From contig NZ_JAUSVX010000007.1 of NCBI RefSeq assembly GCF_030814995.1, positions 62,001 to 126,000 on the forward strand: 64,000 nt of DNA, read 5' to 3'. Below, in pieces: positions 16,293-25,615 of the stretch. Each line of letters begins with the position of its first letter. Position 1 is the stretch's first letter. Under the pieces are notes generated by a model. It had not been told where the DNA came from. It did no database searches and saw only the letters and a list, made by a program, of their open reading frames with translations. Origin of the DNA: Labrys wisconsinensis. Its GTDB lineage: Bacteria > Pseudomonadota > Alphaproteobacteria > Rhizobiales > Labraceae. The position numbers were made by a program, and so were the translations under genes.

Positions 16293-17897
16293 TCAGCCGG
16301 GCGTCGTCGGTCCGACCTGCCGCCATTCCAGGCCGAACCGTGCGAGATACTTGCGCAGCCGGTCCGCATCGTTGGCGCTGCCCTTGCGGGCCCGCGAGGC
16401 GGCGAACAGAGCCCGGCCGGCGGCGCTGAGCGAGGCATGGCGCCGGCAGACCCGCACCACTTCGGCAAGCTGGACGCGATCGAACAGGTCGAGCTCGGCC
16501 GCCCCCGGGCCGAGCAGCCCGGCGAGACCATCTTCGCCGCCGCCCGTGGAAGGCCGCGCCCAGAGCCGGCGCAGGCGCTCGATCTCCTCCTCCACCACGG
16601 CCTGGGTGATCCGGCCCGACGGCGCCAGCGTCGCCAGGCGGGTGATCGACGCCCCGAGGTCGCGGAAATTGGCGCGCCATTCCGCTTCCGGCGACATGGC
16701 GAAGGCGAGGTAGCGCTCGCGCGCCTCGCGGTTGAAGGTCGCCTGCACGCCCTCGGCCTTGGCGTAGCGCCGCAGCTCGAACTCGATATTCGGCTCGATG
16801 TCCTCGCGTCGTTCCTTGAGGCCGGGCAGGTCGAAGGTCCACAGGTTGAGCCGCGCCAGCAGATCCTCGCGGAACCGGCCGGCCGCCACGTCCTCGGCGA
16901 GGTCGCGGTTGGTGCCGGCGATGAGCTGGAAGTCGCTCGCCACCTCCCGGTCAGCGCCGACGGGGGGAAAGCGCTTGTCCTCGATGGCGCGCAGGATCAT
17001 TGCCTGCTCGTCCGGGCCGAGCTCGCCGATCTCGTCGAGGAACAGGATGCCGCGGTCGGCCGAGCGCAGCAGGCCGGCCCGCTCCTGCAGGGCGCCGGTG
17101 AAGGCGCCTTTGACATGGCCGAACAGCGCGGACATGGCGCCGTCGCCGCGCAGGGTGGCGCAATTCACCTCGACGAAGGCGCCGTCGACCTGGTGGCGGC
17201 TGCGCTTCAGATCGTAGATCCGCCGCGCCAGCTGCGACTTGCCGGCGCCGGTCGGCCCGCACAGCAGCAGCGGCGCGCGCGAGCGGACGGCCACCTGCTC
17301 GATGCGGTCGATCATGCGGTTGAAGGCTTCGCTGCGCGTGGCGATGCCGGACTTCAGGAAGGAGGTCGCCTCGACGGCCTCGACGCGGAAGCGCGTGGCG
17401 ATGCGGTCGTAGCGCGACAGGTCGATGTCGATCAGGCCGTAGCCGCCGGCGCCGCCCTCCTGCCCGCCCCTGGGCGGGGTGAGCTGCAGGATCTGCGCCG
17501 GGATGTAGCGCGCCTCGATCAGCAGGAACCAGCAGATCTGCGCGACATGGGTGCCCGTGGTGATGTTGACGACATAGTCCTCCCCGTCCCGGTCGAAGGG
17601 ATAGGCCCGGGCGAAATCGTGCAGGGCGCCGTAGACCTCCTCGAAATCCCAGGGATCCCTGAGATTCATGACGGTGGAGCGCACCTGCGTCTCCGGCGAG
17701 ACCTGGGCGATGTCGGCGCAGACCCGACGGGCCAGGGATTGCGACCGGGTGTCGTGCAGCAGCTCCAGGCGATCGACGACGAAGTCCTCGTGCTGGCAGA
17801 GCGCCACGGTGGGGCGCCAGCGCTCCCAGCGCGCCTCCAGCTTGCCCGCATCCATGGTCGTGCCGAGGAAGCCGAACACCACCCGCCGCCGCGCCAT
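16293..17897 (-). CDS. rtcR: RtcR, sigma-54-dependent activator of RNA-repair genes
   Basis: 534-residue enhancer-binding protein. The N-terminal ~180 residues form the RtcR-type CARF-like sensor (VVFGFLGTTMDAG, LHDTRSQSLARRV, VNITTGTHVAQICWFLLIEA), known in E. coli to sense RNA ends carrying 2',3'-cyclic phosphate. The central AAA+ domain has Walker A GPTGAGKS (residues 214-221), the sigma-54-contact loop GAFTGA (264-269) and Walker B GILFLDE. The C-terminus ends in a DNA-binding helix-turn-helix region. ATG 17897 is preferred over the adjacent GTG 17900. It is divergent from the rsr-kptA-rtcB-rtcA genes, whose promoter is a sigma-54 type, so it is almost certainly their activator. Confidence 0.95.
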   Translation of the reverse strand: MARRRVVFGFLGTTMDAGKLEARWERWRPTVALCQHEDFVVDRLELLHDTRSQSLARRVCADIAQVSPETQVRSTVMNLRDPWDFEEVYGALHDFARAYPFDRDGEDYVVNITTGTHVAQICWFLLIEARYIPAQILQLTPPRGGQEGGAGGYGLIDIDLSRYDRIATRFRVEAVEATSFLKSGIATRSEAFNRMIDRIEQVAVRSRAPLLLCGPTGAGKSQLARRIYDLKRSRHQVDGAFVEVNCATLRGDGAMSALFGHVKGAFTGALQERAGLLRSADRGILFLDEIGELGPDEQAMILRAIEDKRFPPVGADREVASDFQLIAGTNRDLAEDVAAGRFREDLLARLNLWTFDLPGLKERREDIEPNIEFELRRYAKAEGVQATFNREARERYLAFAMSPEAEWRANFRDLGASITRLATLAPSGRITQAVVEEEIERLRRLWARPSTGGGEDGLAGLLGPGAAELDLFDRVQLAEVVRVCRRHASLSAAGRALFAASRARKGSANDADRLRKYLARFGLEWRQVGPTTPG

Positions 17898-17903
17898 CAC
17901 CTG

Positions 17904-17915
17904 ATCCTATAGGAT
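17904..17915. promoter_or_regulatory. Candidate RtcR upstream activating palindrome
   Basis: Perfect 12-bp palindrome ATCCTATAGGAT immediately upstream of rtcR, about 130 bp upstream of the sigma-54 promoter. That is a usual distance for an enhancer-binding protein. A second AT-rich partial palindrome (GTATATTCTTATATC) follows at about 17921-17936. Assignment to RtcR is by position only. Confidence 0.4.
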
Positions 17916-18046
17916 AAGTCTGTATATTCTTATATCGATTTTCTCTCGACGTCGACTCAGGTCCGACCAGGCCTCCGACACGGGCCGAAAGAATTTATCC
18001 TTCTTCACCAAATAGTTGCTGGAAAATCTGGATCGGCGAAAGGACG

Positions 18047-18063
18047 TTGGCACGCTCCTCGCT
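18047..18063 (+). promoter_or_regulatory. Sigma-54 promoter of the RNA-repair operon
   Basis: TTGGCACGCTCCTCGCT matches the sigma-54 consensus with GG at 18049-18050 and GC at 18061-18062, exactly ten bases apart. Only one core base differs in the -12 element (TCGC for TTGC). Transcription would start near 18074, giving a leader of about 50 nt before rsr. It fits control by the adjacent RtcR. Confidence 0.88.
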
Positions 18064-18122
18064 AAAGGAAGTTCGAGCCTGGCGACCGCCGAGCTCCAGA
18101 GATCGAAGCCCGGAGGCACGTC

Positions 18123-19682
18123 ATGGCCAACAAGTCCGTCTTCGCATCCTTCGTGGGCAGGATGCTGCCCGGCGCCGCCGACCGCAATCGGGAGGGCGCG
18201 CCGGCCTATGCGCTCACGCCGAAGCACCGGCTGGCCCAGCTCGCCATGACCGGGACGCTCAACGGCACCTTCTATGCCGAGGCAGAGGCCCAGCTCACCG
18301 ACGTGCTGGCGGCGGCTGCGGCGGTCGAGCCGGGCTTCATCGCCCGCACGGCGGTCCATGCCCGCGAGAAGGGGCACATGAAGGACATGCCGGCGCTCTT
18401 GCTGGCGCTGCTCTCGACGCTGGCGTCGCCGGAGTTCCCGGCCGCCTTCGTCCGCGTCGTCGACAACGGCCGCATGCTGCGCAACTTCGTGCAGGTGATG
18501 CGGTCGGGCGCCGTCGGGCGCAAGTCCCTCGGGACCCGCCCGAAGAAGCTGGTGCAGGCGTGGCTGGAGCAGGCCTCGGCGATCGAGATCATGCGGGCGG
18601 CGGTGGGGCAGGATCCCTCGCTCGCCGACGTGATCAAGATGGTGCATCCCAAGCCGCGGGACGCCGAGCGCGCCGCGCTCTACGCCTGGCTGATCGGGCG
18701 GCCCTACGACGTCGGCGCGCTGCCGGCGGTCGTCGCGGCGTTCGAGGCCTTCAAGCGCGACGCCACGGCGCCGGTTCCCGACGTGCCGTTCCAGATGCTC
18801 ACCGCGCTCCCGCTCACCCGGGAGCACTGGGCGGCCATCGGGCGGCAGGCCGGGTGGCACATGCTGCGGATGAACCTCAACACCTTCGCGCGCCACGGCG
18901 CGTTCGAGGTCGAGGGATTCGCCCGGCACGTGGCGCGGCGGCTGGCCGATGCCGAGGCGATCCGTCGGGCGCGGGTGTTCCCGTACCAGCTCATGGCAGC
19001 CTATGCCATGGCCGGGACGGGCGTCCCCGCCGCGGTGCGCGAGGCGCTGCAGGACGCGATGGAGGTCGCGGTGGCCAACGTGCCCGCCGTGGCCGGCCGC
19101 GTGGTCGTGTGCCCCGACGTGTCGGGCTCGATGGGTTCGCCCGTCACCGGCACCCGCAAGGGCGCGACTTCGAGCGTGCGTTGCATCGACGTCGCGGCCC
19201 TGGTGGCGGCGGCGTTCCTGCGGGCGAACCGCTCGGCGCGGGTCGTGCCGTTCGAGCAGGAGGTGGTCGAGATCGGCCTCAACCCGCGCGATTCGGTGAT
19301 GACCAACGCGGCTCGCCTGGCGGCGATCGGCGGCGGCGGCACCAACTGCTCGGCGCCGCTGGCCAAGCTGGCGGCGGAGCGCGCCAAGGTCGACCTCGTC
19401 GTGTTCGTCTCGGACAACCAGTCCTGGGTCGACGCGACGAGCACGCCGCGGCGCGGGACGGCGATGATGCAGGCCTGGGACGTCCTGAAGAGGTACAACC
19501 CGAAGGCGCGCCTGGTCTGCATCGATCTCCAGCCCTACGGCACGACGCAGGCGCAGGAGCGTCGGGACATCCTCAACGTCGGCGGCTTCTCCGACGCGGT
19601 GTTCGACGTGATCGCGGCCTTCGCCCGGGGCGAGCTCGGCGCAAAGCACTGGGTGGGCGAGATCGAGCAGATCTCGCTCTGA
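18123..19682 (+). CDS. rsr: Rsr, Ro60-like TROVE-domain RNA-binding protein
   Basis: 519-residue bacterial Ro60 orthologue. The N-terminal two-thirds is a TROVE HEAT-repeat ring that binds Y RNA on its outer face and misfolded RNA ends in its cavity. The C-terminal third is a von Willebrand A domain with the metal-site motif DVSGSMGS (Asp332, Ser334, Ser336) and later GGGGTNCSAPL and FVSDNQSWVD, so the MIDAS site is intact. GGAGG at about 18111 supports ATG 18123. It is the first gene behind the sigma-54 promoter and is followed directly by four Y-RNA-like elements. That is the arrangement known in enterobacteria, where Rsr, Y RNA and polynucleotide phosphorylase form an RNA-degrading complex. 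Confidence 0.95.
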   Translation: MANKSVFASFVGRMLPGAADRNREGAPAYALTPKHRLAQLAMTGTLNGTFYAEAEAQLTDVLAAAAAVEPGFIARTAVHAREKGHMKDMPALLLALLSTLASPEFPAAFVRVVDNGRMLRNFVQVMRSGAVGRKSLGTRPKKLVQAWLEQASAIEIMRAAVGQDPSLADVIKMVHPKPRDAERAALYAWLIGRPYDVGALPAVVAAFEAFKRDATAPVPDVPFQMLTALPLTREHWAAIGRQAGWHMLRMNLNTFARHGAFEVEGFARHVARRLADAEAIRRARVFPYQLMAAYAMAGTGVPAAVREALQDAMEVAVANVPAVAGRVVVCPDVSGSMGSPVTGTRKGATSSVRCIDVAALVAAAFLRANRSARVVPFEQEVVEIGLNPRDSVMTNAARLAAIGGGGTNCSAPLAKLAAERAKVDLVVFVSDNQSWVDATSTPRRGTAMMQAWDVLKRYNPKARLVCIDLQPYGTTQAQERRDILNVGGFSDAVFDVIAAFARGELGAKHWVGEIEQISL

Positions 19683-19689
19683 CGACGAC

Positions 19690-19796
19690 GGCCGGGGGGA
19701 ATGCTCTCGGGACTCCATCGGCTTCGTGGCGATCCTCGGACACGCGCGAAGGGCTGCTTGCGCAGCGCTGTCTCGAGGTCCCTCGTCCCCCCGGCC
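19690..19796 (+). ncRNA. Y-RNA-like element 1 (degenerate)
   Basis: First of four tandem elements between rsr and kptA. An 11-bp perfect terminal helix pairs GGCCGGGGGGA (19690-19700) with TCCCCCCGGCC (19786-19796) and is followed by TTTT. It shares the GAATGC..CGGGACTCC block and the 3' TCTCG..CCTCGTC block with the other three. An internal hairpin GCTGC-TTGC-GCAGC (19753-19766) sits where the acceptor stem occurs in element 4. No recognisable T arm is present. The run of T after the helix means it could instead be an attenuator behind rsr. Confidence 0.5.
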
Positions 19797-19799
19797 TTT

Positions 19800-19925
19800 T
19801 CGAACGACCATGGCGAATGCCTGCGGGACTCCATCCGCCGACAGAGCGCCGACGGCAGGAACCGTCGCCCGGCTCACCGTTACCGGGAGCTCAGTCTCGC
19901 AACGCCTCGTCGCCATGGCCTTCGA
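19800..19925 (+). ncRNA. Y-RNA-like element 2
   Basis: Terminal helix formed by CCATGGCGA (19808-19816) and TCGCCATGG (19910-19918), with an outer TCGAA/TTCGA pairing beyond an internal loop. The 5' strand carries GGCGAATG, fitting the Ro-binding consensus GNCGAAN(0-1)G as recalled for bacterial Y RNAs, then the shared CGGGACTCC block. Inside are a hairpin CGACGG/CCGTCG (19850-19867) in the T-arm position and CCCGG/CCGGG (19868-19887) in the acceptor position. The loop is not a standard T loop, so tRNA mimicry is weaker than in elements 3 and 4. Confidence 0.65.
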
Positions 19926-19938
19926 GGGAGGCACCCTG

Positions 19939-20067
19939 CGGCATGACGAATGCCGGCGGAACTCCATATTAGCCGGTTCGAATCCGGCATCCCCGACATG
20001 CGCGTGGGACCGCAGCTCTGCAGGTGAGCATATGACAACCGGTTTCGTCGATCTCGTCGTCATGCCG
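19939..20067 (+). ncRNA. Y RNA (YrlA-like) with tRNA-like T and D arms
   Basis: Terminal helix of 11 bp pairs CGGCATGACGA (19939-19949) with TCGTCATGCCG (20057-20067). The 5' strand contains GACGAATG, matching the bacterial Ro-binding motif, then CGGCGGAACTCC. A perfect T arm GCCGG-TTCGAAT-CCGGC lies at 19972-19988 and a D arm GCTC-TGCAGGT-GAGC at 20015-20029. The T arm precedes the D arm, so the tRNA-like domain is circularly permuted as in Salmonella YrlA. The acceptor-like stem between them is short, about 4 bp (TCCC/GGGA). Confidence 0.83.
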
Positions 20068-20102
20068 TCCCCGCGGCTCGAATGAAATGAAACCGATTGG
20101 AA

Positions 20103-20245
20103 GGAGGCCGCGACGAATGCCGGCGGAACTACAGAGCTTCAAACTCCCGGGTTGCGGGTTCGAATCCCGCCGGGCTCACCATGCGAGCCCGTAGCTCAAC
20201 GGATAGAGCAGGACGTTTCGCCAATCCCTCGTCGTCGCGGCCTTC
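20103..20245 (+). ncRNA. Y RNA (YrlA-like) with near-perfect permuted tRNA domain
   Basis: Terminal helix of 14 bp (one G-U) joins 20103-20116 to 20232-20245, with core GGCCGCGACGA/TCGTCGCGGCC. The 5' strand carries the Ro-binding motif GACGAATG. The core reads as a tRNA in permuted order: T arm GCGGG-TTCGAAT-CCCGC (20154-20170), then acceptor strand CGGGCTC (20171-20177), loop ACCATGC beginning like discriminator plus CCA, acceptor strand GAGCCCG (20185-20191), TA, then D arm GCTC-AACGGATA-GAGC (20194-20209). All stem lengths (5, 7, 4) and the two-base acceptor-D spacer are canonical. The anticodon arm is replaced by the Ro-binding helix. It ends 19 nt before kptA. Confidence 0.88.
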
Positions 20246-20264
20246 CCGCCTGCAGGAGAGTGTC

Positions 20265-20825
20265 ATGAAAGAAGCCCTCAGCAAGTTCCTCAGCTATGTC
20301 CTGCGCCATGCGCCGCAGTCGATCGGCCTGACGCTGGATGCGCAGGGCTGGGCCGAGGTGGATGCGCTCATCGCCAGGAGCGCGGCCGCCGGACAGCGCT
20401 TCGACCGGGCGATGCTCGCCGAGCTGGTGGCGGCCAACGACAAGAAGCGGTTCACGCTGTCGCCCGACGGCACGCGGATCCGCGCCGCGCAGGGCCACTC
20501 CGTCGCCGTCGAGCTGGGCCTGGCCCCGTCGACGCCGCCGGACCGGCTCTATCACGGCACGGCAACCCGCTTCCTCGCCGCCATCCTGGCCGAGGGGCTC
20601 AAGCCCGGCTCGCGGCAGAAGGTCCACCTCTCGGCGGATCGGGAAACGGCACGGCGCGTCGGGCTCCGGCACGGCAAGCCGGCGATCCTGATCGTCGAGG
20701 CCGGGGCCCTGCACCTGTCCGGCCAGCCGTTCTGGCAGGCCGACAACGGCGTCTGGCTGACGGACCGGGTCGACCCGGCCTTCCTGCAGCCCGCCGAACC
20801 CGATGACGATCCGAACAGCGAGTGA
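20265..20825 (+). CDS. kptA: RNA 2'-phosphotransferase (KptA/Tpt1 family)
   Basis: 186-residue protein with the complete two-lobed Tpt1 fold. The N-lobe has LSKFLSYVLRHAPQSIGL (Arg14-His15 of the Arg-His-Arg-Arg set), GWAEVDAL and the KKRFTL segment. The C-lobe NAD-binding part has YHGT (96-99), KVHLSAD and FWQADNGVWLTDRV. The family transfers an internal RNA 2'-phosphate to NAD+, giving ADP-ribose 1'',2''-cyclic phosphate. The start at 20265 is fixed by AGGAGAG just upstream. It lies between the Y RNAs and rtcB and its stop overlaps the rtcB start region, so it is co-transcribed with the repair genes. This pairing is notable because RtcB itself leaves no 2'-phosphate. Confidence 0.93.
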   Translation: MKEALSKFLSYVLRHAPQSIGLTLDAQGWAEVDALIARSAAAGQRFDRAMLAELVAANDKKRFTLSPDGTRIRAAQGHSVAVELGLAPSTPPDRLYHGTATRFLAAILAEGLKPGSRQKVHLSADRETARRVGLRHGKPAILIVEAGALHLSGQPFWQADNGVWLTDRVDPAFLQPAEPDDDPNSE

Positions 20826-20830
20826 CGACG

Positions 20831-22081
<1,251 letters not shown>

Positions 22082-22122: not shown

Positions 22123-23193
22123 ATGATCACGATCGATGGTGCCCAGGGAGAAGGCGGCGGCCAGATCCTGCGCACCGCCCTCACCCTGTCGATGGCGACG
22201 GGCAAGCCGTTCCAGATCGACAGGATTCGCGCCGGCCGCGCCAAGCCGGGCCTGATGCGCCAGCACCTCGCCGCGGTGCGCGCGGCCGCGGCGGTCTGCG
22301 GCGGCCGCGTCGCCGGCGACGAGCCGGGCTCGACGCGGCTGCGCTTCGAGCCCGGCCCGGTGCGGGCCGGCGACTACATCTTCGCGATCAACTCGGCGGG
22401 GTCGACGGCGCTGGTGCTGCAGACGGTGCTGCTGCCGCTCGCCCTGGCCTCGCAGCCCTCCAGCCTGGTGCTGAGGGGCGGAACGCACAACGGCAATGCG
22501 CCGCCCTTCGAGTTCGTCGACAGGGCGCTGCTGCCGCTGCTGCGGCGGATCGGCCTCGCCGTCACCGCCGGCCTGAAGCGGCCCGGCTTCTATCCTGCCG
22601 GCGGCGGCCAGGTCGAGGTGGCGATCGCCCCGGCAGACGACCCGCTCCGGCCGCTCGACATCCTGGAGCGTGGCGAGTCGCGCGGGCGCAGCGCCGAGGC
22701 GATCCTGGCCAACCTGCCCTTCGCCGTGGCGCAGCGCGAGCTCGACACGCTGCGCGCGGCCTTGGACTGGCCGGTCGGCGCCATGCAGCCGAGGATCGAG
22801 ACGCAGGCCGACGGTCCCGGCAACGTCCTGGCGGTGACGCTGGTCTTCGAGGCCGTGACCGAGGTGGTGACCGGCTTCGGGGAGCGCGGCCTGGCCGCCG
22901 AGACGATCGCCCGGGATGTCGCCGGGCGAACCGCGGCCTATCTCGGCTCCGGCGCGGCGGTCGGCCCGTTCCTGGCGGACCAGCTGCTGCTGCCGATGGC
23001 GCTCTGCCGCGGCGGGCGGTTCTCGACCGTGCAACCGACGGCGCACACGACGACCAACCTGGCGGTGATCGGCGCGTTCCTCGATGACATCCGGTTCGAG
23101 GTCGCCGCCGCGGAGGAGGCGCGCTGGACCATCGGCGTGTCGAGCGCCCGCTGGGACGATGCGCCGATCCGGACTATGACGGCGGCGCCCTGA
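22123..23193 (+). CDS. rtcA: RtcA, RNA 3'-terminal phosphate cyclase
   Basis: 356-residue enzyme that converts an RNA 3'-phosphate to a 2',3'-cyclic phosphate through a covalent His-AMP intermediate. It has the hallmark N-terminus DGAQGEGGGQILRTALTLSM, GRAKPGLMRQHL, INSAGSTALVLQT, FYPAGGGQVEV and ADQLLLPMAL. The adenylylated His308 lies in PTAHTTTN. Length is normal for the family. ATG 22123 aligns with family starts; an alternative ATG at 22078 overlaps the rtcB stop and would add 15 residues. It is the last gene of the operon. A 7-bp hairpin GGCGACG/CGTCGCC directly after the stop (23194-23211) may end transcription, though it lacks a U tract. Confidence 0.95.
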   Translation: MITIDGAQGEGGGQILRTALTLSMATGKPFQIDRIRAGRAKPGLMRQHLAAVRAAAAVCGGRVAGDEPGSTRLRFEPGPVRAGDYIFAINSAGSTALVLQTVLLPLALASQPSSLVLRGGTHNGNAPPFEFVDRALLPLLRRIGLAVTAGLKRPGFYPAGGGQVEVAIAPADDPLRPLDILERGESRGRSAEAILANLPFAVAQRELDTLRAALDWPVGAMQPRIETQADGPGNVLAVTLVFEAVTEVVTGFGERGLAAETIARDVAGRTAAYLGSGAAVGPFLADQLLLPMALCRGGRFSTVQPTAHTTTNLAVIGAFLDDIRFEVAAAEEARWTIGVSSARWDDAPIRTMTAAP

Positions 23194-23302
23194 GGCGACG
23201 CCGCCGTCGCCCCCTGCCCCATCGACACCTGCCCTTGCGTCCGCAGGGGAAATGCCCTGGAATGGCATCTCCTCTCGGTTGTGCTCCGGCCGGATCCTCG
23301 CC

Positions 23303-24664
23303 ATGCGCAGTCTCCTCGTCGCCTTCGCCGCGCTCATCCTCGGCGTCGCACCGGCATGGGCGGCCAAGCCGCCGGCAAAGCCCGCGCCGGAGACCATGCG
23401 CGTCGTGCTGGTGCACGGCGACGAGACGGGCTGCGCGCCGCACTGCGCCGCCTGGATCTCGGCGGAAGGCACGATCACGTCGCAGACTCCGGCCGCCTTC
23501 CAGCGCCTGATCGGCGCCAGGGGCTTCGAGAAGGTGCCGGTCGTCATCCGCTCCCGCGGCGGCGACGTCGAGGCGGCCATGGCGATCGGCCGGCTGATCC
23601 GCGCCCACAAGCTCGACGTGGTGGTCGGGCGCACCTTCTTCGAGCCCTGCATTCCCGGCAGCCGGGACTGCGACGAGGCGGCCGGACGAGGCCTGACCGG
23701 CTCGACCTCGTCCTGGCGCGCCTTCTGCGCCTCGGCCTGCTCGGAGATCCTGGCCGCCGGAACGGGCCGCTTCGTGCCGGCCGATGCCGTCGTCGGCGTG
23801 CACCAGGTGGTGCGGACGGGCACCTTCGTCCGGAAGATGCTGACCTTCTCGGTCCGCCGCCGGCTGGTCGGCGGCGTGCCGGTGGAGGTCAGCCGCCGCC
23901 TGGTGCGCGAGAGGGTGGTGTCCAGCCAGACGCGCCAGGTCCCGACCAGCCAGGCCTATTACGACCGGATCGGGCGCTATTTCCGCGCCATGGGCATCGG
24001 CGAGGCCATCATGCCCATCATGGAGGCGACGCCGTCGGCCTCGATCCACTGGATGACGCGCGAGGAGCTCGACCAGTGCGGACTGGCGACGGGCATGGTG
24101 GCGCCGCAGAACGTGGTGGAGATGGCCAACCTGGCGCTGCATCCGCGCCCTGTCGCAGCGGCCGCTCCCCCGCCCGCGCCGATAGCACCAGCGGTCGTGC
24201 CTGCAGCGACGACGGCGCAGCCTCATGCCGCCGCCCCGCTTCCTGCGCGCCTGTCGGCCATGGGCGAGGCGCAAGTCGGTCGCTTCCAGGGCGCTCCGGT
24301 CACGGTGTTCGTCGCCTTCGCCTGGGAGCGTGGCTCCGCCTCGGTCGAAATCTCGGCGACACCTCTCGTCTCGCAGGGTGAGGTTCCGCTTTCCGACCTG
24401 CGGGTTCTAGTCCGGCCCGCATCCGCTCCGGACATGCTGCTCGCTGCCGACCATGCCGGCACCGGCCTCACGGCCCTCATGCCGAAATCGGCGTTCTGCG
24501 CATTGGCCGCGGATCCGAGGCTGAAGATCGACGTCGCCTCCTCGGGGACGCCGGCCATATCGGGCGAGACGCTCTATACCAGCGTCGGAGCGTTTCACGA
24601 TATCCGACCGATCCTGGGCGCCGCCTGCGCTCCGCCGGGCAGCCTGGCCTCCGCCCCGCCCTGA
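23303..24664 (+). CDS. Exported ClpP/crotonase-fold-like protein (COG3904-like)
   Basis: 453-residue protein with a signal peptide (MRSLLVAFAALILGVAPAWA, cut near residue 20). Residues 30-290 resemble a ClpP-like fold: RSRGGDVEAAMAIGRLIRAH recalls the ClpP SPGG helix region, FCASACSEILAAG places Ser144 like a nucleophile, and GVHQV places His167 like the catalytic His. A Pro/Ala-rich linker (about 285-320) leads to a C-terminal domain of unknown type. Proteolytic activity is not demonstrated for this family. It stands 110 nt after rtcA on the same strand but has its own start context, and a role in RNA repair is not implied. Confidence 0.65.
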   Translation: MRSLLVAFAALILGVAPAWAAKPPAKPAPETMRVVLVHGDETGCAPHCAAWISAEGTITSQTPAAFQRLIGARGFEKVPVVIRSRGGDVEAAMAIGRLIRAHKLDVVVGRTFFEPCIPGSRDCDEAAGRGLTGSTSSWRAFCASACSEILAAGTGRFVPADAVVGVHQVVRTGTFVRKMLTFSVRRRLVGGVPVEVSRRLVRERVVSSQTRQVPTSQAYYDRIGRYFRAMGIGEAIMPIMEATPSASIHWMTREELDQCGLATGMVAPQNVVEMANLALHPRPVAAAAPPPAPIAPAVVPAATTAQPHAAAPLPARLSAMGEAQVGRFQGAPVTVFVAFAWERGSASVEISATPLVSQGEVPLSDLRVLVRPASAPDMLLAADHAGTGLTALMPKSAFCALAADPRLKIDVASSGTPAISGETLYTSVGAFHDIRPILGAACAPPGSLASAPP

Positions 24665-24775
24665 GCCAATGGCTCCCGGCCGCTGGACGCGAGCGGCGAG
24701 CGATTGCAGGATCGGGCCTGGGGTGCGACATCGGCGGAGATGACCGGCCCCCGGCCGATTCACGGAGACCTGCCG

Positions 24776-25615
24776 ATGCAAACGGGCGAGCGCGGACGGA
24801 ATGGCACTCCCGGGACCGAACCCACCTTCGAGGATACGGACGAAACGCCGGCGGCTCTCGCCGAGCTCGGGGACTACGTACCGGAGTCCGCACCCTGGGT
24901 CCGTCTGGACGAGGAGAATGGCAGCTTTCCCGGGAAGCTGACGGGACGCCTGAAGCAGCTCGACCGCGAGCTCGTGCTCCTGCCCTTCGAGGAGCCGATG
25001 CTGATCAGCGAGCTCGACGGCTTCGTCGCCGGCCTGCTGGTCAGCCCGAATGCGGTCCCACCCGCCGAGTGGCTGCCGCTGGTCTGGGGTGCGGACGGCG
25101 AGAATGGCGAGGGTGACGAGCCCGCGTTCGAGCGCACCCGTCAGGCCGAGAAGGTCGTGCGCCTCGTCATGCAGCACCACGACGCCGTCGCTGCCGCCCT
25201 CGCCAAGGGAGGCCTGTCCTACGAGCCGATCTTCGATATCGACCCCCGCAACGACGACGTCCTGTGGGAGCCATGGGTGGTGGGCTTCATGAAAGGCTAC
25301 GCCGTCCATCCGCCGGAACGGGAAGACTGGCTGAGCGGCGACGAGGAGGCAGAAAGCGCCCTCAGCGCGCTGGTAGCATTGGCCGCGATCGACAGCGGCG
25401 AAAGCCTTGTCGACGAGGAGAAGGCGGAGGAGCTGACGCAGTCGGCTCCCGACATCATCCCTCTCTGTGTCGAGGCGCTGCACGCCTGGAAGGCGAAGCA
25501 GCCCGCCGCCCAGGCCGCGTCCATGCCGGTGCCGCACTTCGGCAAGGTTGGCCGCAACGACCCCTGCCCCTGCGGCTCCGGCCGGAAGTACAAGAAATGC
25601 TGCCGCCAGGATTGA
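24776..25615 (+). CDS. UPF0149 (YgfB/YecA) family protein with C-terminal SEC-C motif
   Basis: 279-residue cytoplasmic protein. The central region ([20 protein letters not shown], then EWLPLVWG and [11 protein letters not shown]) matches the UPF0149 YecA-like helical domain. The C-terminus is a zinc-binding SEC-C motif, [16 protein letters not shown], like that at the end of SecA. Function is unknown; SEC-C tails are proposed to mediate protein-protein contacts. ATG 24776 has GGAGA upstream. It converges on the aldehyde dehydrogenase gene over 45 nt. That gap holds a GC-rich inverted repeat (GGTCGC at 25617 and GCGACC at 25645) that may stop transcription from both sides. Confidence 0.8.

What the first reader, a model, noticed from the sequence alone, without database searches (positions are those of the whole stretch)
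19690..20245. Array of four tandem Y-RNA-like elements inside an RNA-repair operon
Between rsr and kptA there are 582 non-coding bases organised into four consecutive units. Each unit is closed by a long terminal helix: 11 bp, 9 plus 5 bp, 11 bp and 14 bp. All four share a 5' block (GAATGC..CGGNACT) and a 3' block (TYTCG..YTCGTC). Helix sequences differ between units while pairing is kept, which is covariation visible within one locus. Enterobacterial rsr loci carry one or two Y RNAs; four in a row with graded tRNA mimicry looks unusual.
Basis: partly seen in the sequence, partly recalled or inferred. Interest (0 to 1): 0.92.

Follow-up and report, generated by a model that had tools for sequence, protein, structure and literature searches.

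The report
Tandem array of diversified Y RNAs
Between two genes of a bacterial RNA-repair operon lie four different small-RNA genes of the Y RNA kind, two of them built like rearranged transfer RNAs; related bacteria carry similar ordered sets, so four is normal there, but the variety within the sets looks under-described and is testable.

Summary
The 582-base rsr-kptA gap has four units, each with an outer helix, an AUGC/CUCG internal loop and an inner helix. A motif-and-helix scan finds only these four on either strand of the window (0.075 per shuffle). A covariance model built without window sequences finds all four (E 6.7e-37 to 6.1e-9); its next match is E 5.3.

They are best read as bacterial Y RNAs, partners of Rsr. 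Unit 4 carries a tRNA-like domain (T arm, acceptor, D arm, Y stem in place of the anticodon arm). Unit 3 is a weaker copy. Units 1 and 2 have other upper modules, found elsewhere too.

"Four is unusual" is wrong: 42 of 80 named rsr loci hold four or more by the same scan. Arrays follow rsr: three rtcR loci without rsr have none; two rsr loci have arrays with no rtc genes within the 12 kb taken.

Arrays are ordered sets of distinct classes. In other genomes, one class is a tRNA opened in the D-loop instead, with a 4-base loop at the anticodon position in 34 of 43 units parsed. I found no description in the held library; the key 2014 paper was not held. Function (Rsr binding, tethering, decoy) is inferred.

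The parts
16293..17900 (-). rtcR, sigma-54 activator with RtcR sensor domain, divergent to the operon
   Evidence: PF06956 E 8e-83, PF00158 E 5.5e-48
18047..18063 (+). sigma-54 (-24/-12) promoter-like site TTGGCACGCTCCTCGCT before rsr
   Evidence: pattern match; one mismatch to the recalled consensus; similar sites before rsr in L016-L019 and L021; 30 of 79 loci with enough upstream DNA (window included) match the pattern used, so 49 do not
18123..19682 (+). rsr, bacterial Ro60 orthologue
   Evidence: PF25045 vWA_Ro60 E 1e-18, PF05731 TROVE E 2.4e-6
19690..19796 (+). Y RNA unit 1 (class A): 11-bp outer helix, AUGC/CUCG internal loop, inner helix, GC-rich upper stems, no tRNA features
   Evidence: models without window sequences: R1 E 6.1e-9, R3 E 2.1e-13; same class in L016, L017, L027
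19808..19918 (+). Y RNA unit 2 (class B): outer helix CCATGGCGA/TCGCCATGG, inner helix, GAGC/GCTC stem enclosing two hairpins, no T-loop
   Evidence: R1 E 2.9e-10, R2 E 1.1e-17; 9-sequence alignment, 18 of 34 pairs with two-sided changes
19938..20068 (+). Y RNA unit 3 (class C): T arm and D arm kept, acceptor stem poorly paired
   Evidence: RF02553 34.7 bits; R1 E 2e-15 with four acceptor pairs non-standard; not read as tRNA when circularised
20103..20245 (+). Y RNA unit 4 (class C, YrlA-like): permuted tRNA-like domain (T arm, acceptor with ACCA in its loop, D arm), Y stem in place of the anticodon arm
   Evidence: RF02553 68.3 bits against cut-off 69; R1 E 6.7e-37; circularised module read as tRNA by ARAGORN in 74 trim variants
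20265..20825 (+). kptA, RNA 2'-phosphotransferase (Tpt1/KptA)
   Evidence: PF01885 E 9.8e-47; found in 2 of 80 named rsr loci, L044 and L057, within the flanks fetched
20831..22081 (+). rtcB, RNA ligase
   Evidence: PF01139 E 1.2e-126
22123..23193 (+). rtcA, RNA 3'-phosphate cyclase
   Evidence: PF01137 E 1e-74

Best explanation
The gap encodes four non-identical Y RNAs, cotranscribed with rsr, kptA, rtcB and rtcA from one sigma-54 promoter under RtcR (inferred from layout). The lower double stem of each unit is the Rsr-binding handle (inferred from the family). The upper part is a variable effector module. In units 4 and 3 it is a circularly permuted tRNA body whose anticodon arm is replaced by the Y stem (shown by model and circularisation for unit 4; weaker for unit 3); in units 1 and 2 it is a different fold shared with other loci. 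Most likely, tRNA damage activates RtcR, and the cell then makes Rsr together with a set of RNAs that load it with different upper modules: tRNA-like ones that dock PNPase or enzymes which recognise tRNA, and others that gate or address the ring differently (inferred). The array follows rsr and not the rtc genes (shown in the genomes examined).
For: Only four units in the window, none on the other strand, against shuffles. Models without window sequences find all four. In 80 named rsr loci 285 of 286 forward scan hits lie within 3 kb downstream of rsr and none on the reverse strand; four loci had none by scan, of which three have covariance-model hits and the fourth has only 231 bases after rsr. 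Three rtcR loci without rsr have no units in 13-14 kb; two rsr loci (G073, G108) have arrays with no rtcR, rtcB or rtcA match in 12 kb, though both genomes have an rtcR elsewhere. rtcR divergent, rsr, array, then rtcB in 66 of 80 loci by scan. Circularised modules read as tRNA in 89 of 108 class C units at some trim, one shuffled set 0 of 108. A divergent TROVE/vWA_Ro60 protein in another genome also has an R1 match beside it. RtcR responding to tRNA fragments, and Rsr-YrlA-PNPase complexes: passages of PMC7790460 and PMC8394870.
Against: No transcript, processing site or Rsr binding is shown; no promoter or terminator was found between units, so separate RNAs depend on processing that is not demonstrated. 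All four units miss the Rfam cut-off. Model R1 is not specific genome-wide: it hits tandem tRNA genes at up to about 53 bits (14 of 15 such places checked), above the scores of units 2 and 1 (42.2 and 37.7 bits), whose support comes from the lower stems, R2, R3 and position. The own-genome search scored 150 of 3770 candidates and itself missed unit 1. Unit 1's class rests on three other sequences, and R3 also gives a match elsewhere in the window at E 0.0028. R2 and R3 were built from units chosen because they cluster with the window's. The 80 loci are the best of 574 and include many near relatives, so counts are not independent.
Confidence: 0.8

Rival explanations
1. The tRNA-like units act mainly as decoys: tRNA bodies without a cuttable anticodon loop, held on Rsr, that occupy tRNA-cleaving nucleases or tRNA-fragment binders while RtcB and RtcA repair real tRNAs.
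For: The anticodon arm is replaced by the Y stem in class C; in cluster 9 units of other genomes the anticodon-position hairpin has a 4-base loop in 34 of 43 analysed (tRNA control 1 of 32). PMC7790460 raises competitive inhibition by the YrlA tRNA-like domain (passage).
Against: Units 1 and 2 have no tRNA features; no binding to any nuclease is shown; a held review describes a PNPase tether instead. ARAGORN parsed a 3-base anticodon in 11 of the 35 cluster 9 units it read.
Confidence: 0.3
2. The gap is a cis-acting leader for kptA-rtcB-rtcA, a structured tRNA-sensing or attenuating element, not a set of RNA genes.
For: It sits between rsr and rtcB in 66 of 80 loci, and tRNA-like folds in leaders exist in principle (recalled).
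Against: It is absent from three rtcR loci without rsr and present after rsr in two loci without rtc genes in 12 kb; unit number varies from 1 to about 9; no terminator-like switch was found.
Confidence: 0.08
3. The units are decaying tandem tRNA genes or pseudogenes.
For: T arm, ACCA and D arm stand in the order of a tRNA-spacer-tRNA junction; model R1 hits real tandem tRNA pairs, best on repeated tRNA-Lys genes, so an origin of the class C domain from such a junction is plausible.
Against: Linear modules give no tRNA in ARAGORN; lower stems unrelated to tRNA covary in classes B, 8 and 9; classes recur across genera.
Confidence: 0.02

Closest known systems
Bacterial Y RNA YrlA (Rfam RF02553)
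   Same: Unit 4: lower double stem, GAAUGC/CUYGUC blocks, T arm, acceptor and D arm in permuted order, next to rsr.
   Different: Window copies score just below or well below the cut-off; units 1 and 2 have other upper modules; four units stand in a row.
Salmonella rsr-yrlB-yrlA-rtcB-rtcA operon
   Same: Divergent rtcR, rsr first, Y RNAs, then rtc genes; sigma-54 control (passages of PMC9879122; PMC7790460).
   Different: Four units here instead of two, with kptA before rtcB.
Deinococcus radiodurans Rsr-Y RNA-PNPase complex (RYPER)
   Same: Ro60 orthologue with a Y RNA whose lower stem binds Rsr (passages of PMC4726728; PMC8394870).
   Different: RNA-repair operon and an array of distinct units; PNPase binding not tested here.
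Permuted tRNA genes of algae and archaea (recalled, no call)
   Same: Halves of a tRNA in swapped order.
   Different: Here fused to a Y stem, acceptor closed by a loop, no usable anticodon loop in class C; not expected to decode.

Membership tests
Bacterial Y RNAs (Yrl), broad family | Encoded beside an rsr/Ro60 gene | tested here: met
   Seven bases between the rsr stop and unit 1
Bacterial Y RNAs (Yrl), broad family | Long stem pairing 5' and 3' ends with conserved internal loop | tested here: met
Bacterial Y RNAs (Yrl), broad family | Binding to Rsr | not testable with these tools
   Needs pull-down or gel shift
Bacterial Y RNAs (Yrl), broad family | Discrete small transcripts | not testable with these tools
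   Needs RNA data
YrlA (Rfam RF02553) | Score at or above the curated cut-off of 69 bits | tested here: not met
   68.3, 34.7, 25.7 bits, unit 1 unmatched; not filed as RF02553 members, only as Y RNAs of the broad kind
YrlA tRNA-like domain | T arm, acceptor and D arm in permuted order (unit 4) | tested here: met
   All model pairs kept, ARAGORN after circularisation
YrlA tRNA-like domain | Same domain in unit 3 | tested here: inconclusive
   T and D arms kept, four acceptor pairs non-standard; ARAGORN negative
YrlA tRNA-like domain | Same domain in units 1 and 2 | tested here: not met
   Module not aligned in the R1 match; only a wrong-strand hit in 2 trims for unit 2
RtcR-controlled RNA repair operon | rtcR divergent, rsr, rtcB, rtcA | tested here: met
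RtcR-controlled RNA repair operon | sigma-54 promoter before rsr | tested here: inconclusive
   One-mismatch site at 18047-18063; no activity data

The most novel reading that the evidence does not exclude
Rsr arrays are ordered panels of RNA adaptors in which a common Rsr handle is grafted onto tRNA bodies at different points: in the anticodon arm (class C, window units 3 and 4) and, in other genomes, in the D-loop (cluster 9, and cluster 8 with a long variable arm like tRNA-Leu), mostly with the anticodon loop replaced by a 4-base loop, beside non-tRNA modules (window units 1 and 2). The panel presents several tRNA faces that cannot be cut or decoded, to capture or block different tRNA enzymes and nucleases during tRNA repair.
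Probability: 0.4. Interest if true: 0.82.

Novelty: new variant of a known kind. Interest (0 to 1): 0.6.

Why it matters
The role of Rsr and Y RNAs in RNA repair is left open in PMC7790460 (passages). Arrays of distinct, conserved Y RNAs suggest that Rsr is loaded with alternative effector modules. That can be tested unit by unit, and tRNA bodies without a normal anticodon loop give a concrete hypothesis. At its cut-off Rfam found at most one YrlA in each of ten loci tested (7 with one, 3 with none; two of the ten hold only 1.5 kb after rsr), so most units are probably unannotated.

Tried and rejected
Rfam at gathering threshold: nothing in the window. ARAGORN on the window: one tRNA-Val inside rtcA on the other strand, taken as false. 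sigma-70 promoters and terminators from 17850 to 20900: none. Nearest own tRNA for circularised modules: no clear isotype for most; the set had 32 tRNAs and no tRNA-Leu, so the Leu likeness of cluster 8 rests on recalled features. Stretches with further class II tRNAs were fetched but never analysed. Class B as a decayed D-loop-opened tRNA (GAGC/GCTC stem enclosing hairpins): suggestive only. ARAGORN on the unit 2 module: two hits on the complementary strand, counted as noise. Pfam gave nothing for 23252-24661. Weak R1 hits in other genomes of the phylum as new Y RNAs: rejected, since 14 of 15 stretches fetched (a selection of the hits, strong and weak) are tandem tRNA genes; the fifteenth (G148, 68 bits) is in a genome with rsr. 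The other weak hits were not checked.

Limits: the scanner demands pairing, so pairing of lower stems in its output is by construction; support for those stems is their location, the empty reverse strand and the models. The covariation counts use alignments whose structures came from the same sequences; one measure for class B was not above shuffles (further pair types, 128 of 500). The cluster 9 alignment used 23 of 51 units, that of cluster 8 used 9 of 10, and R1 used 30 of 108 class C units. In one search, 8 of 51 cluster 9 units were missed by the parser. Without trimming away the inner stem, circularisation gave tRNAs only in class C (21 of 108) and in no cluster 8 or 9 unit; the figures for those clusters need the trims (up to 99 per unit, same for shuffles).

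Full report
What is there. Between rsr (ends 19682) and kptA (starts 20265) lie 582 bases with four units on the + strand: 19690-19796, 19808-19918, 19938-20068 and 20103-20245. Each has an outer helix ending in GA/TC, an internal loop with AUGC on one side and a stretch ending CUCG on the other, and an inner helix of about 8 bp. Helix sequences differ between units while pairing is kept. A scan for this motif and helix finds these four and nothing else on either strand of the window. Dinucleotide shuffles of the window gave 0.075 hits per shuffle, and shuffles of the gap 0.0005.

Neighbours. Pfam gives rtcR on the other strand, then rsr, kptA, rtcB and rtcA. A sigma-54-like site with one mismatch lies at 18047-18063, before rsr. 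No sigma-70 promoter or terminator was found from 17850 to 20900, so the units are probably part of one transcript. The genome is probably a Labrys: two same-genus genomes share contig lengths with Labrys sp. KNU-23 and L. okinawensis. Among the 80 named loci the nearest Rsr is that of Inquilinus limosus, 80% identical.

Identity. Rfam's YrlA model scores units 4, 3 and 2 at 68.3, 34.7 and 25.7 bits, cut-off 69, and does not report unit 1. Model R1, built from 30 tRNA-like units of other genomes (two from the congener L018), finds all four at E 6.7e-37, 2e-15, 2.9e-10 and 6.1e-9; its next match is E 5.3. Model R2 (eight class B units, window left out, two from congeners) gives unit 2 E 1.1e-17. 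Model R3 (three class A units) gives unit 1 E 2.1e-13, but also a match elsewhere at E 0.0028. R2 and R3 members were picked because they cluster with the window's units, so these are not blind tests. In the whole genome R1 found nothing else above 31 bits, and that match overlaps a tandem tRNA pair; this search scored 150 of 3770 candidates and missed unit 1.

A caution on R1. In 398 genomes of the phylum R1 had matches at E 1e-6 in 65. Most are weak. Of 15 places fetched, 14 are tandem tRNA genes, often two copies of tRNA-Lys, at up to about 53 bits; the fifteenth, at 68 bits, is in an rsr genome. So scores below about 55 bits mean little genome-wide. The likeness itself is informative: the class C domain has the layout of the junction between two copies of one tRNA gene (T arm, acceptor end, CCA, spacer, acceptor start, D arm), which suggests how it may have arisen (inference).

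Upper modules in the window. Unit 4 keeps every pair of the model: T arm, 7-bp acceptor with ACCA in its loop, D arm. In a tRNA the order would be acceptor, D, anticodon, T; here the acceptor ends are joined by a loop and the molecule is opened at the anticodon arm, where the Y stem sits. Circularised, the module is read as a tRNA by ARAGORN. Unit 3 keeps the T and D arms but four acceptor pairs are not standard, and ARAGORN does not read it. Unit 2 has a GAGC/GCTC stem enclosing two hairpins; in nine sequences, the window's included, 18 of 34 pairs show two-sided changes. Unit 1 has GC-rich stems shared with three other loci.

How common. A scan for Rsr relatives kept the best 80 of 574 loci. 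In these, 285 of 286 forward hits lie within 3 kb downstream of rsr and none on the reverse strand; units per locus were 0:4, 1:3, 2:12, 3:19, 4:18, 5:16, 6:7, 7:1. Of the four empty loci three have R1 hits (L077, L083, L093) and the fourth, L065, has 231 bases after rsr. A congener (G002) has nine R1 hits, two of them weak (E 1.6e-4 and 0.024), and six by scan. So four is ordinary. rsr itself is not common: 14 of 120 relatives, own genome included, at E 0.001, two of them weak, and 7 of 385 genomes drawn from the class, own included, at E 1e-20.

What the array follows. rtcR loci without rsr (G011, G014, G048) have no units by scan or model in 13-14 kb. Two loci (G073, G108) have rsr and an array but no rtcR, rtcB or rtcA match in 12 kb; both genomes have an rtcR elsewhere. 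A divergent protein with TROVE and vWA_Ro60 domains also has an R1 match beside it (L216, 72 bits). This favours RNA partners of Rsr over a leader for the rtc genes. In the 80 loci rtcR divergent, rsr, array and rtcB stand in that order in 66; RtcR was found in 78, RtcB in 71, RtcA in 24 and KptA in 2, with flanks of 5 kb or less.

Classes. Clustering 289 units (four of the window, 285 others) gives recurrent classes in a fairly fixed order: A-B-C-C in the window, A-B-C-D-E-C in Inquilinus, C-T-D-R in four loci of Rhizobium and relatives, C-T-D-E-L in a Mesorhizobium (letters as, D = cluster 9, L = cluster 8). Of 77 loci with units, the window's included, 74 hold class C. The nearest unit is in another locus for 285 of 289 units; near relatives inflate this, and for window unit 3 the margin is small (0.40 against 0.34). 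The units look old and diversified, not fresh repeats.

A second permutation. In cluster 9 (51 units, 42 loci) RNAalifold on 23 units places a D stem directly inside the inner stem, enclosing an anticodon-position hairpin, a T hairpin and an acceptor hairpin: a tRNA opened in the D-loop. 21 of 34 pairs have two-sided changes; 96.3% of cells pair against 80.3% in shuffles. Cluster 8 (10 units, 9 aligned) adds a long variable arm, as in tRNA-Leu (recalled); 16 of 38 pairs have two-sided changes. With the inner stem trimmed away, circularised modules read as tRNA at some trim in 35 of 51 (cluster 9), 6 of 10 (cluster 8), 89 of 108 (class C), 5 of 39 (cluster 10), 1 of 28 (cluster 15) and 1 of 9 (class B, wrong strand); one shuffled set of all 289 modules gave 1, the linear modules none. 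Untrimmed, only class C was read (21 of 108; 0 of 2890 shuffles). The anticodon-position hairpin of cluster 9 has a 4-base loop in 34 of 43 analysed units (10 GNRA, 1 UNCG, 23 others; 8 units not parsed), against 1 of 32 own tRNAs folded the same way; in cluster 8 it is 5 of 10. ARAGORN itself parsed a 3-base anticodon in 11 of 35 cluster 9 modules and 2 or 4 bases in 24. These two clusters are absent from the window itself.

Mechanism. Shown: units, stems, tRNA-like domain, association with rsr. [quoted passage not shown] PMC9879122); YrlA's stem binds Rsr and its tRNA-like domain binds PNPase (PMC8394870). Inferred: each unit loads Rsr with a different module, tRNA-like ones for PNPase or enzymes that recognise tRNA, others for other partners or gating. 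The decoy reading is compatible and was raised for YrlA in PMC7790460.

Novelty. Bacterial Y RNAs, their tRNA mimicry and the operon are known. I recall that Chen et al. 2014 reported Y RNAs near Ro60 in over 250 species with at least one tRNA-like per species, which implies several in some; that paper and the 2018 and 2020 reviews were not held. Word searches, of which I saw the listings and passages of six papers, showed nothing on permuted classes or long arrays, but the library is partial. I rate it a new variant of a known kind.

Noticed in passing
L123:4093-4911, L121, L096, L118, L137 (viral contigs): 19 of 58 Rsr-bearing viral contigs, some near-identical to each other, hold two or more units by the same scan anywhere in the fetched stretch, up to 8; none on the reverse strand. 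Phage-borne Y RNA arrays may be common.
   Followed up: partly
window 20265-20825: kptA between array and rtcB is rare: 2 of 80 named loci (L044, L057).
   Followed up: partly
L017: A genome labelled Mycobacterium sp. KBS0706 has an Rsr 78% identical to the window's and the same A-B-C-D-E-C array as Inquilinus; the label looks wrong.
   Followed up: no
L216:1501-1626: Class C Y RNA match (72 bits) beside a divergent TROVE/vWA_Ro60 protein in G119, where the class search found no Rsr at E 1e-20.
   Followed up: partly
L009:3520-3597: Between Y units of G078 ARAGORN reads an unpermuted tRNA-Pro, and a second tRNA-like stretch follows by eye: tRNA genes inside a Y RNA array.
   Followed up: partly
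L005 and L008, after the array: In place of kptA a different reading frame seems to begin shortly after the array (by eye: MTRIDGNTLIGWGF.. and a similar one).
   Followed up: no
G411:C23:215592-215881, G401:C196:21773-21983 and others: Tandem copies of tRNA-Lys genes score up to about 53 bits with the Y RNA model, a hint at the origin of the YrlA domain and a trap for annotation.
   Followed up: partly
window 24704-25615: UPF0149 protein with a C-terminal SEC-C motif downstream of the operon.
   Followed up: no
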